From: Haladaptatus halobius | Lineage (GTDB): Archaea > Halobacteriota > Halobacteria > Halobacteriales > Haladaptataceae | NCBI RefSeq assembly: GCF_020618475.1 | Contig: NZ_CP085341.1 | Span: forward strand, 1 to 64,000 | Direction of reading: 5' to 3' | DNA length: 64,000 bases | Part shown: positions 45,691-62,853 of the stretch, in pieces | Numbering within the stretch: the first letter of the stretch is position 1 | How the letters are laid out: every line of letters starts with the position of its first letter | Position numbers and translations under genes: made by a program | Notes under the pieces: generated by a model | The model's database searches: none | The model's input: the letters and a program-made list of their open reading frames with translations, nothing else | Told to the model about the DNA's origin: nothing

Positions 45691-45830
45691 TCTCACTGGT
45701 TACAGTGAACCGAATGCCTAAGTGGTTTGTGAGCATACCTCACGATGTCGGGTCTTGCATCGACGTTCGGTCATACCCGACGAACGTGGATCGCACGGTG
45801 CAGCCAAATCACCTCTCTTATCCACGTTTC
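45691..45830 (+). ncRNA. Tandem-hairpin structured element, copy A
   Basis: P0 is TCACTG/CAGTGA (45693-45698 with 45703-45708, loop GTTA). P1 is GTCGGGT/ACCCGAC (45747-45753 with 45775-45781). P2 follows after one base: AACGTGGAT/ATCCACGTT (45783-45791 with 45820-45828). No frame runs through it. See the other copies at 45854, 57733, 57951, 62562 and 62757. Whether it is transcribed is inferred only from structure. Confidence 0.55.
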
Positions 45831-46057: not shown

Positions 46058-46118
46058 GCTAAGTGAGTGACTAGCATTCCCCTGTGTGTCGGGTGGGGTC
46101 ATAGTGAGTTCACCTTAA
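46058..46118 (+). ncRNA. Tandem-hairpin element, partial copy C
   Basis: CTAAGTGAGTGACTAGCAT and CCCCTGTGTGTCGGGTGGG match the leader and 5' P1 strand of copy E, but the 3' half is missing after GTGAGTTCACC. It shows that units are lost from the 3' side. Confidence 0.45.
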
Positions 46119-46389
46119 GGTTGAGAGAAGCAAGAGTCAGGATATTTTCGCCATCACTTGACCTATGTGCGCAAAGCATAGTTTGATTAAGAGAGACGCA
46201 TGATCCGTGGAGGACAATTAATATCCTGATTCTATAGACCACAGCGGCGGTGTACAACGATTTCATGGGGTGACAGTTGGACTGGCGATGACGCTGCTTC
46301 GTTCGTGAACTGCATAGCCCACGAATACGTATTGTGATCATATATGCGCCAGTGGTTTTATTGACTTGAGAGGTTGTTTTGGAGATGGT

Positions 46390-46665
46390 ATGAACGATCT
46401 CACCGCCTTTCAACGTGATTTACTCTACGTTCTTGCGGGACTCAATGATCCGCATGGGCTTGCACTGAAAGATGAGCTCGAAGACTATTATGAAAAAGAG
46501 GTGCATCACGGGCGGCTGTATCCAAACCTTGACGCCTTGGTTGACAAAGGACTGGTTGAAAAGAGTGAAAAAGATCGCCGGACAAACGAATACGTACTTA
46601 GCCAACGTGGCCATCAGGAACTTGACGCACGCCGCGAGTGGGAGTCACAATACGTCGAGATCTGA
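46390..46665 (+). CDS. PadR family transcriptional regulator
   Basis: The 91-residue protein has DLTAFQRDLLYVLAGLNDPH, LALKDELEDYYEKEVHHGRL, YPNLDALVDKGLVEKSEKDR and a wing, TNEYVLSQRGHQELDARREW. It is paralogous to 18640-18933. The ATG 46390 is preferred to the upstream GTG/ATG. It follows the structured elements A-C by 270 bp on the same strand. Confidence 0.88.
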   Translation: MNDLTAFQRDLLYVLAGLNDPHGLALKDELEDYYEKEVHHGRLYPNLDALVDKGLVEKSEKDRRTNEYVLSQRGHQELDARREWESQYVEI

Positions 46666-57620: not shown

Positions 57621-57732
57621 GGCAGTATTGAACGACAGTATCGCTGAGAGAGTCCCAAGTAAATCATATTAGTCAATTTGATGCTCTTTGTAACTTCCCA
57701 AAGTACTTTGCTACCACATCATGCTAACTTTC

Positions 57733-57820
57733 GTTGGGCTCTCATGACGGTTGTTAGATGAGCATGCTCGACGAACGTGGGCAGCGTACTCACCGCTTCA
57801 CCACCGCTTACTCACGTTTC
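57733..57820 (+). ncRNA. Tandem-hairpin structured element, copy D
   Basis: P1 is GTTGGGC/GCTCGAC with two G-U pairs (57733-57739 with 57766-57772) and an inner CTCAT/ATGAG. P2 abuts it: GAACGTG/CACGTTT (57773-57779 with 57813-57819). It is the most divergent copy, and pairing is kept by G-U and compensating changes. Confidence 0.5.
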
Positions 57821-57950
57821 AGTACTGCAACAAGTGTAGCGCTGGCACTTTCATCCACATTACTTCAATATATACCTTTTTGACCGATCAATTACTCGTT
57901 CAGGGTAGGAGACAGTCATGAGGAGACCATTCGCGCGCCCATGTCCCCTT

Positions 57951-58086
57951 CTCACTGCCGACAGTGAACCCAACCACTAAGTGAATGACTAGCATCCCCC
58001 TTTGTGTCGGGTGGGTCAGAGTGAGTTCCCTCGACGGACGTGGACTTCACGGTACCTAGCACCTACCTCTATCACTCCACGTTCCA
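57951..58086 (+). ncRNA. Tandem-hairpin structured element, copy E
   Basis: P0 is TCACTG/CAGTGA (57952-57957 with 57962-57967, loop CCGA). The leader is CTAAGTGAATGACTAGCAT. P1 is GTCGGG/CCTCGAC (from 58006 to 58035). P2 is GGACGTGGA/TCCACGTTC (58036-58044 with 58076-58084). Its final 54 nt are identical to copy B. Confidence 0.6.
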
Positions 58087-58594
58087 GGCAGTGTCATGCT
58101 CGTTGGAGAGGTATATTCGTTTTCAAAGAGTAGAACAAGTGTAATATCATGTACATACCTATGAAGAAGGAACCATTAGAAGGTAGATCCGCAACCACGG
58201 TATACGGTCATTGGCATGATATCGGGCGATGACCCTGATTCTCAATAGAACACGGCTACCAGCCGATCTCTAATAGATCTCGAATGGCCAGGATCTATAA
58301 GGCCGTGTCAATCCTACTCATGATTTGGGGCAGTTCTGTCCCACTGACGATAGCCAGCGTGAGTAGGAGTGCTTTGTTTCATGGGTTCTCCTGGTGGCGA
58401 ACGCAGAGGAGTTGGAGAGCGATTTCCCCTTCCAACCTCCTCCCGAAAAGTCACGTTATGAGGCTGTAGTCGTCAGTAGCTTGCTCTAGTGGCCATGCAG
58501 TAGGGTCGACATCGCTAGCGTCATAGCAATTTCCCCAACGATTAAATTAAAAAAATTTAAATAATTTTAACTTATATATGAATATGAGTTCGTA
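58087..58594. other. Intergenic with AT-rich tract
   Basis: A short + strand frame (58284-58469) has one hydrophobic stretch but is not convincing. An A/T-only run lies at about 58541-58578, just before the UspA fragment. Confidence 0.35.
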
Positions 58595-58924
58595 GTTAAT
58601 CAACTAGACGCCACAACCGATAGTCTCATCATCACTGCACCCACAGCTGCTGGGCTTATTGGCTTCGAGGAGGTGGTGGATGAGACCATAGAACGAGCAA
58701 ATCAGGCGTCGGTTGCGTCCGTAACTGGATCAGTTTGCCGCGGGGAGCCCGCCCAGACAATTCTCGATTACATTGAGACAAATGATATCGATCTCATCGT
58801 CATGGGCACCCATGGTCGAAGCGGGCTTGACCGACATCTTCTCGGAAGCGTCACCGAGAAAGCCGTTCGACATTCCAATGCGTCCGTCCTTACGGTGCGA
58901 AGAACTGATTCGGAACGTAAGTAA
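58595..58924 (+). pseudogene. Universal stress protein (UspA) family, N-terminally truncated
   Basis: The frame carries the C-terminal two thirds of a UspA domain: ETIERANQASVASVTGSVCR, GEPAQTILDYIETNDIDLIV, and MGTHGRSGLDRHLLGSVTEK with the ATP-binding GxxGxxxxxxGSVxxxV motif. The N-terminal beta strand with its MYxxILVPVDGS start is missing. Upstream is an AT-rich run. A GTG at 58673 could start a partial product. Confidence 0.7.
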
Positions 58925-62088: not shown

Positions 62089-62561
62089 GTACTTCGTTAT
62101 ACGCTAACTTCTGAATTAAATACCCGGATATCAATTGGAGAGAGAACAGTAACCGCGCATAACAGATTCAGAACGTAAATCTACTGGTGAGAGTGCGACT
62201 GCGAGATGATGTGGTGATTTATTTTAAACTTCTATTAGTCAGCGATTTTCTCACTACCCAGTTCGATGGATGGGATTTCTTCCTCGAAAATATCGTACTT
62301 GAAGTAGGACATCTCCCCAGAGCAACAGCAGAACTGTGATGCTAATCGATTGACGTCTGTGCCTATAATCTTCGACCTCACACAGTCCACGCACCGACGG
62401 ATCAAACTTGATATTTATGTGTGAGATACGTCAGACGACTCGCTACATATCCACCCCGCTAAGAGTATCGTTTGGTTTCCCCCTCTTTCTCTCACCCATG
62501 ATTTATCCATTGACTATTTCCTTATCCAAAAATATTTTGGCTATGGGTGACAAGCAACAAT
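62089..62561. other. Intergenic upstream of structured elements
   Basis: No coding-like frame. It may contain the promoter for copies G and F. AT-rich stretches near 62215-62235 and 62500-62540 could hold TATA boxes. Confidence 0.35.
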
Positions 62562-62668
62562 TGTCGGGTGTTGATGGAGGGAAAGGAACGTGCGTCCCAC
62601 CCGACAAACATGGGGAACTCGTGGCGATGGAGAATCTGGTCAGTGCGCTTCGTACATCCCCATGTTCA
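62562..62668 (+). ncRNA. Tandem-hairpin structured element, copy G
   Basis: P1 is TGTCGGGTG/CACCCGACA, nine perfect pairs (62562-62570 with 62598-62606). P2 abuts it: AACATGGGGA/TCCCCATGTT, ten perfect pairs (62607-62616 with 62657-62666). Relative to the other copies, the P2 change from CG to CA on the 5' side is balanced by TG for CG on the 3' side. Confidence 0.6.
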
Positions 62669-62756
62669 GTGACTCTGCTCGGTAAGTGAGAGCTATCTCT
62701 CGATTAGTTTGCCGCTTTCCCCAATTTCCTTGAAATCCCTCACCATGCTACGTAGT

Positions 62757-62853
62757 GTCGGACGTGAACGGCGGCAGTTGGACTGCGCTATTCACGTCCG
62801 ACGAACGTGGGATTCGCAGTGATAGAGATATCCCATCCGCACCCACGTTCCAG
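62757..62853 (+). ncRNA. Tandem-hairpin structured element, copy F
   Basis: P1 is GTCGGACGTGAA/TTCACGTCCGAC, twelve perfect pairs (62757-62768 with 62791-62802). P2 abuts it: GAACGTGGG/CCCACGTTC, nine perfect pairs (62803-62811 with 62842-62850). P1 differs from GTCGGGTG in copy G at paired positions on both strands. Confidence 0.62.

What the first reader, a model, noticed from the sequence alone, without database searches (positions are those of the whole stretch)
62562..62853. Tandem-hairpin element with compensating base changes: a candidate new structured RNA family
Two adjacent units (G and F) each have two abutting perfect hairpins. P1 is TGTCGGGTG/CACCCGACA in G and GTCGGACGTGAA/TTCACGTCCGAC in F. 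P2 is AACATGGGGA/TCCCCATGTT in G and GAACGTGGG/CCCACGTTC in F. Substitutions occur in pairs (for example G-C to A-T at P1 position 6), while loops differ completely. With the copies at 45.7 and 57.7-58.1 kb there are six two-hairpin copies, all + strand, none in a gene. This is direct sequence evidence of selected structure. That it acts as RNA, rather than as a single-stranded DNA site for recombination or replication, is inference. I do not recognise it as a known class.
Basis: partly seen in the sequence, partly recalled or inferred. Interest (0 to 1): 0.9.

Follow-up and report, generated by a model that had tools for sequence, protein, structure and literature searches.

The report
Repeated twin-hairpin element in Haladaptatus
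A short non-coding DNA unit whose one strand folds into two side-by-side hairpins is repeated, often in small clusters, on the extra replicons of a salt-loving archaeon and in sister species; evolution has kept the folds by paired base changes, so it is probably a new structured RNA or hairpin repeat family whose job is unknown.

Summary
G (62562-62668) and F (62756-62851) are two abutting hairpins each, with four further intact copies and one truncated copy in the window. They belong to a wider family: 24 copies at E<=0.004 in this genome, six of them the model's own, none on its 2.87-Mb contig C1. At E<=0.05, 7 of 9 Haladaptatus genomes match, 6 without three chance-like rows. Wider searches, of limited depth, gave nothing convincing elsewhere.

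The fold is selected: 14 of 16 pairs show two-sided changes; a tree-aware null gives 2.3 double-change events against 17.5; sequence-only alignment of 12 copies from other species gives the same fold. Per pair, significance is weak. G.T exceeds A.C 72:20, so the + strand folds. At one orthologous locus the core is 86% identical, flanks 38-65%.

Rfam has no match. IS110 and IS605 links failed. Best reading: a genus-specific modular structured RNA (0.5). Main rival: a mobile hairpin DNA repeat (0.3). Transcription is unshown.

The parts
62562..62668 (+). copy G: P1 (TTGTCGGGTG/CACCCGACAA, 62561-62607) abutting P2 (AACATGGGGA/TCCCCATGTT, 62607-62666)
   Evidence: (E 2.0e-10)
62756..62851 (+). copy F: P1 (GTCGGACGTGAA/TTCACGTCCGAC) abutting P2 (GAACGTGGG/CCCACGTTC)
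   Evidence: (E 7.9e-18)
45746..45830 (+). copy A, first of a cluster A-B-C; near-copies of the A-B pair on contigs C6 and C5 and an A-like copy elsewhere on C7
45906..45986 (+). copy B; core 94% identical to E although the flanks differ
46087..46127 (+). truncated copy C (5' flank and P1 5' arm only)
57732..57820 (+). copy D (P1 GTTGGGC/GCTCGAC with G.T pairs; P2 GAACGTGG)
58005..58085 (+). copy E
57690..58115 (+). composite D-E unit (about 430 bp) found at five places with different flanks; its linker carries further hairpin-like segments (weak evidence)

Best explanation
A Haladaptatus family of modular, multi-copy, structured non-coding RNA elements. Each module is about 40-60 nt of conserved 5' flank followed by two abutting hairpins, P1 (GTCGGG/CCCGAC) and P2 (GAACGTGG/CCACGTTC), with long variable loops. 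Modules often stand as direct-repeat doublets or short arrays about 150-340 nt apart in intergenic DNA, in this genome only on the accessory replicons. The + strand folds as a single strand (shown by covariation and G.T bias). I infer that it is transcribed, probably from a weak promoter about 55 nt upstream of the first P1. I further infer that the constant stems and C-rich P2 loop are bound by a trans-acting factor (protein or RNA), and that tandem modules make the RNA multivalent, as in a sponge or scaffold RNA. Copies spread by segmental duplication and recombination between copies. Shown: fold, selection, strand, distribution as far as searched. Inferred: transcription, partner, sponge or scaffold role.
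For: Covariation: 14 of 16 pairs with two-sided changes, 0 of 500 shuffles reach the score (53 copies). Tree-aware null: 17.5 double-change events observed against 2.33 +/- 1.49, maximum 8 in 500. The same fold comes de novo from a sequence-only alignment of 12 copies of four other species, 8 of 15 pairs with two-sided changes, including P1 GCTGGATAC/GTATCCAGC in G003. G.T/T.G 72 cells against A.C/C.A 20, leaving out pair 9-97 (75 against 30 with it). Orthologous locus (G007:C7:89.6 kb and G000:C4:561.7 kb): core 83/96 identical, neighbouring DUF1328-like coding stretch 122/156, upstream intergenic 128/236, 5' flank 40/62, 3' flank 26/65, further 3' 69/180. TATA-like box (score >=4.5) at -60..-46 in 11 of 34 leading modules against 3 of 19 following ones; it is the highest bin of the leading profile, which rises gradually from -90 (7, 8, 11). 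No gene family recurs at a fixed place next to the copies: the commonest is in 8 of 22 neighbourhoods at 0.5-8.6 kb, which speaks against a simple cis-acting leader.
Against: No transcript data exist here. No T-run terminator: T4+ in 13 and A4+ in 14 of 40 copies. All-pairs covariation test not significant. In 7 of 14 pairs of copies with cores at least 85% identical, the 3' flank is at background identity right after P2, and the unit is dispersed, which suits mobile DNA. The covariation alignments A2, A3 and A5 are fitted to the model (A1 and A6 are not), and the tree of the null is built from the same columns.
Confidence: 0.5

Rival explanations
1. A non-autonomous mobile DNA repeat that works like PATE/REP elements: the hairpins fold in single-stranded DNA of one strand and are recognised by a nuclease or transposase acting in trans; doublets are the two ends, single copies are leftovers of recombination between them.
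For: Dispersed copies with different flanks, direct-repeat doublets, no coding gene. In 7 of 14 pairs with cores at least 85% identical the 3' flank is at background level (e.g. B-E, C2:153k and G007:C5 with G007:C2:459k, B with its C6 counterpart), so the end of P2 is a recurrent break. A longer 5' end than 3' end is also described for PATEs. Absent from contig C1, dense on the plasmid-size contig C7.
Against: No dedicated enzyme seen: 4 Y1-transposase matches in 3 genes, each about 0.9-1.1 kb from a TnpB match, and no TnpB or Y1 match on C7, which carries the most copies. No precise empty site was found: at purL the extra 1.5-kb segment of G007 carries an ORF too and has no clean ends. A single copy at an orthologous locus is better conserved than its surroundings.
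Confidence: 0.3
2. A modular transcribed repeat of the BOX/ERIC type: parasitic in origin, folded as part of host transcripts, affecting stability or ends of neighbouring mRNAs, without a dedicated trans function.
For: Modular, intergenic, variable numbers of modules, as reported for pneumococcal BOX (passages of PMC3049150). Neighbouring ORFs (mechanical calls, output partly cut) lie in mixed orientations.
Against: Both helices are kept by compensating changes, and one fixed copy is strongly conserved, more than expected of a passive parasite. I did not test enrichment between convergent genes.
Confidence: 0.12
3. Guide RNA of a known recombinase or nuclease system (IS110 bridge RNA, TnpB omega RNA), with the variable loops as guides.
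For: Two adjacent hairpins with variable loops resemble a bridge RNA in outline (recalled). 57 TnpB matches in the genome.
Against: No IS110 recombinase in the genome (0 matches). The nearest TnpB match to a copy is about 1.3 kb away on C4. Loop matches in the roughly 0.48 Mb examined that reach 30 bits: loop 1 in 4 copies (plus strand) and 1 (minus), loop 2 in 0 and 2; of those printed, the L030 ones are its own unmasked copy and the others lie about 130-195 nt from a known copy, so they look like relic modules. Rfam: one sot0042 match near a G003 copy (E 7.9e-10, below the gathering score), 127 nt beyond the core, not in it.
Confidence: 0.03

Closest known systems
PATEs (palindrome-associated transposable elements) of Haloquadratum walsbyi (PMC3119063; passages read)
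   Same: Haloarchaeal, non-coding, dispersed, no terminal inverted repeats, palindromes near both ends that can be direct copies of each other, full and terminal-only forms.
   Different: PATE palindromes are related to IS605 ends; here no such link was found. Each module here has two abutting hairpins with 8-45-nt (P1) or 22-48-nt (P2) loops in the 40 copies measured.
Pneumococcal BOX elements (PMC3049150; passages read)
   Same: Modular structured intergenic repeats with variable module numbers.
   Different: No sequence comparison made; archaeal, and every module is the same two-hairpin type.
REP elements, GTAG and CGTC families (PMC3733652; passages read)
   Same: Short conserved palindromes in many places, often in pairs; CGTC REPs also lack a dedicated transposase and show TGTC variants of the tag.
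   Different: REP tags are unpaired, CGTC loops are 4-5 nt and dimers mostly head-to-head; here GTC is paired, loops are long and clustered modules are head-to-tail.
Large ornate RNAs GOLLD and ROOL (PMC12286853; search listing and start of abstract only)
   Same: Large structured RNAs, if the arrays here are one transcript.
   Different: No Rfam match, archaeal, built from repeated modules, transcription unshown.

Membership tests
Any Rfam 15 family | score at or above the curated gathering cut-off | tested here: not met
   0 matches in the 64-kb window; on 7 loci with copies, 2 matches with E up to 1, both outside the cores
Structured RNA family | covarying base pairs across homologues | tested here: met
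   (aggregate); per-pair test over all columns not significant, 1 of 16 pairs in the restricted test
Structured RNA family | a transcript of the folded strand | not testable with these tools
   no RNA-seq; TATA-like box modest; no terminator signal
PATE / IS200-IS605 derivative | ends related to those of an IS605-type element of the host | tested here: not met
   none of the places lies within 1 kb of a TnpB or Y1 match; the ends of each IS605 element were not aligned one by one
PATE / IS200-IS605 derivative | no terminal inverted repeats, hairpins near both ends, no transposase gene | tested here: inconclusive
   doublets in direct orientation without a gene between them, but the true ends of the unit are not defined
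PATE / IS200-IS605 derivative | precise insertion without target duplication | tested here: inconclusive
   purL locus gave no clean empty site; the G006 chromosomal site has no counterpart in the other 8 genomes
REP (CGTC or GTAG) | unpaired tag next to a short stem, CGTC loops of 4-5 nt, mostly head-to-head dimers | tested here: not met
   the G, T and C of P1 are paired in 51/52, 49/52 and 52/53 copies; loops 8-48 nt; direct orientation in clusters
IS110 bridge RNA | IS110 recombinase in the genome | tested here: not met
   PF01548: no match in the genome; 4 of 14 control genomes ring
TnpB omega RNA (sot) | lies at the 3' end of tnpB | tested here: not met

The most novel reading that the evidence does not exclude
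The arrays are single, large, multi-domain archaeal RNAs of accessory replicons, built by repeating one two-hairpin module (D, E and sometimes a third module, with linker hairpins between), working like an ornate scaffold or sponge RNA: an archaeal counterpart in kind, not in descent, of GOLLD/ROOL.
Probability: 0.15. Interest if true: 0.8.

Novelty: new variant of a known kind. Interest (0 to 1): 0.5.

Why it matters
To my knowledge few structured RNA families are known from archaeal plasmids, and the haloarchaeal hairpin repeats that I found in print are tied to IS605 (PMC3119063). A modular family with no known partner, a conserved fold and a fixed, strongly conserved copy gives a defined object for RNA-seq, structure probing and partner pull-down in a cultured species (H. 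salinisoli), and a clean test of RNA against single-stranded DNA function.

Tried and rejected
IS110 bridge RNA: no recombinase. IS605/TnpB/PATE descent: no TnpB or Y1 match within 1 kb of a copy. Tyrosine recombinase link: one integrase-like ORF (by eye) beside a G006 copy has no relative among the loci then in my search file, and the 9 PF00589 matches in G000 lie 6.8 kb or more from the copies. Loop-loop kissing within a module: no support (158 of 200 permutations at least as good; 40 of 52 copies, the 12 without two clean helices of 5 bp dropped). Loops as guides: no external targets seen in about 0.48 Mb. Cis-acting leader: neighbouring genes and orientations differ. Coding: no ORF seen to be shared by the copies (by eye). 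Viral origin: the IMG/VR scan gave 0 with an exact pattern that matches only 15 of 52 known copies. Attempts at an empty site.

Distant members: in 392 genomes of the order, 22 have matches at E<=0.01, of which 5 are Haladaptatus. The other 17 are weak (one, in G034, at 9.9e-6, the rest 4.8e-4 or worse). That search scored only 11 first-look candidates per genome, and the own-genome and genus searches 150 (of 1274-2738), so counts are lower bounds and absence outside the genus is not proved. I printed nine of the 17 places. Eight loci are 56-70% GC and the G034 match itself 67%. At least four of the nine, the G034 place included, do fold as two hairpins, as a model of this kind would select. 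I saw single GC-rich places without the conserved flanks and take them as chance; G034 stays open. In the genome-contig scan 5 of 21 stretches are Haladaptatus and 16 are other taxa; one of these (Poribacteria, 29.1 bits) scores above the true DYF46 copy (28.2) but was selected by the pattern.

Classing flanks as D- and E-type was circular for the TATA question, so repeats it by position in the cluster (34 leading, 19 following). Left out of A5: the truncated C9 copies, L030 and the G034 place. Left out of A6: two G001 copies found and L136.

Full report
What was checked. The two units at 62562-62853 are as described: perfect arms, P1 directly followed by P2. The window holds six two-hairpin copies (A, B, D, E, G, F), all + strand, plus a truncated C. 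A plain count of abutting perfect hairpins is not far above shuffles (2 against 0-2), so the case rests on homologues, not on the two units alone.

The family. A covariance model of the six copies (R1) finds 32 places at E<=1 in the host genome, 24 of them at E<=0.004 including the six: 10 on C7 (the window's contig, 270,724 bp), 4 on C6, 3 each on C5, C4 and C2, 1 on C3, none on C1 (2.87 Mb). Only 150 of 2738 first-look candidates were scored, so these are lower bounds. Taking the 24 as 15 separate loci, none on C1 has a chance of about 5e-4 if spread were uniform by length (my arithmetic). In other species copies also occur on the contigs numbered C1 (G007, G006). A second model from 35 copies (R2) finds matches at E<=0.05 in 7 of 9 Haladaptatus genomes: 30, 11, 5, 4, 4, 1 and 1 rows. 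Three of the weakest rows (L089, L101, L105) sit in GC-rich loci and look like chance; without them it is 6 of 9. G003 has a copy of the same sequence as one of Haladaptatus sp. DYF46. Outside the genus I found nothing convincing, with the limits told under Tried and rejected. BLAST of the plasmid collection with three element regions, one of them from H. salinisoli itself, matches only H. salinisoli.

Structure is selected. On a 35-copy alignment 11 of 16 pairs have two-sided changes. With 53 copies it is 14 of 16, 94.2% of cells paired, and no shuffle of 500 reaches the covariation score. Sliding the partners by 1-3 columns drops pairing to 27-48%. A null that rethrows each column's substitutions on the tree gives 2.33 +/- 1.49 double-change events (maximum 8 of 500 runs) against 17.5, and 87.1% pairing (maximum 92.5%) against 94.2%. 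These alignments are fitted to the model and the tree is built from the same columns. The independent check is: 12 copies from four other species, aligned by sequence only, fold into the same two hairpins, 8 of 15 pairs with two-sided changes. In G003, P1 has become GCTGGATAC/GTATCCAGC with the pairing kept. Against this, an R-scape-like test over all 3240 column pairs puts a P1 pair first but at E 0.165; within the 16 pairs, 1 passes (0.0008) and the next is at 0.068. The stems are too conserved for strong per-pair power (my reading).

Which strand. G.T or T.G occurs in 72 cells, A.C or C.A in 20, leaving out the ragged pair 9-97 (75 and 30 with it). Double-stranded cruciforms or two protein sites should give no such bias. 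The + strand is therefore the folded one, as RNA or as single-stranded DNA. P2 loops are C-rich and G-poor (C 0.33, G 0.17 in 35 representatives).

Architecture. Modules in clusters mostly start about 150-340 nt apart. Of the 15 loci, 8 have two or more modules within 350 nt, 10 with weak partners. Among 21 loci searched without filters, two apparently single copies gain an upstream partner at E<0.01 (L021, L023; 155 and 205 nt) and a third at E 0.12 (L100). G001 has doublets. The D-E doublet with its linker is a unit of about 430 bp found at five places with different flanks. Its linker shows further hairpin-like segments, but with five sequences covariation does not support them (covariation term unfavourable, 7 of 79 pairs with two-sided changes). 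In 7 of 14 pairs of copies with cores at least 85% identical the 3' flank is at background identity (0.50-0.60; shuffled 0.56), in the other 7 it is 0.70-0.97. So the 3' end of P2 is a recurrent break, by recombination between copies or by mobility.

Selection at one fixed place. G007:C7:89.6 kb and G000:C4:561.7 kb are orthologous (DUF1328 and PRC-barrel genes by the H. salinisoli annotation). There the core is 83/96 identical, the coding stretch 122/156, the upstream intergenic part 128/236, the 5' flank 40/62, the 3' flank 26/65 and the next 180 columns 69/180. This is hard to explain by a decaying mobile relic, though conversion by other copies is not excluded.

Transcription signals. A TATA-like box is most frequent at -60..-46 before the first module of a cluster (11 of 34; mean best score 2.70, the highest bin, rising gradually from -90) and less so before following modules (3 of 19). 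There is no T-run signal after the modules. I call this weak support.

Mechanism. I commit to a structured RNA made of repeated two-hairpin modules, binding a trans-acting factor through its constant stems and the C-rich P2 loop (confidence 0.5 for RNA action; the partner and sponge or scaffold role are inference). The main rival is a mobile single-stranded-DNA hairpin repeat like PATE/REP (0.3). The two can both be partly true, as discussed for BOX elements (passages of PMC3049150).

Known families. Rfam negative. IS110: no recombinase. IS605: 3 Y1 genes, each about 0.9-1.1 kb from a TnpB match, 57 TnpB matches, none on C7. REP: tag and loop features not met. PATE: anatomy similar, descent not shown. 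Literature searches that found no description: (open PMC papers only).

Noticed in passing
L055 (G000:C9:1-20000): C9 (21,460 bp) looks like a head-to-tail dimer of a 10.73-kb plasmid: the same ORFs and a truncated, A-like copy recur 10,729 bp apart. It carries a relaxase-like and a coupling-protein-like ORF (by eye only).
   Followed up: partly
G000 contigs C1-C6: 57 TnpB zinc-ribbon (PF07282) matches in one genome, 30 of them on the 600-kb C4 and none on C7.
   Followed up: no
window 46366-46665 and L056, L059, L061: PadR-like regulator genes of one family lie within about 1.1 kb of copies in 4 neighbourhoods (a fifth at 8.3 kb; 22 examined), in mixed orientations.
   Followed up: no
L102:1201-1374 (- strand): A sot0042 (TnpB-associated sRNA) match, E 7.9e-10 but below the gathering score, 127 nt downstream of a twin-hairpin copy; one TnpB query found no tnpB relative there.
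   Followed up: partly
L058:8855-9131 and L104:1247-1592: Doublets lie upstream of a purL-like gene (named by eye) in both G007 and G001. In G007 they sit in a 1.5-kb segment that G000 lacks.
   Followed up: partly
L057:8593-8686, L076:9692-9786, L136:1225-1333: Copies next to a DUF1328-like gene in G007, G000 and G003; in G003 the copy is upstream of the gene, not downstream.
   Followed up: partly
P2 loops, e.g. window 58060-58075: The CACCTACCTCTATCAC loop motif recalls the 3' tail of archaeal 16S rRNA (recalled, untested).
   Followed up: no
window 58673-58924: ORF matching only the C-terminal half of the universal stress protein family (profile 72-141 of 141), so probably a gene fragment.
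   Followed up: no
L109:2220-2288 (Poribacteria MAG): Pattern-selected match scoring 29.1 bits with R2, as good as a true Haladaptatus copy; probably chance.
   Followed up: no
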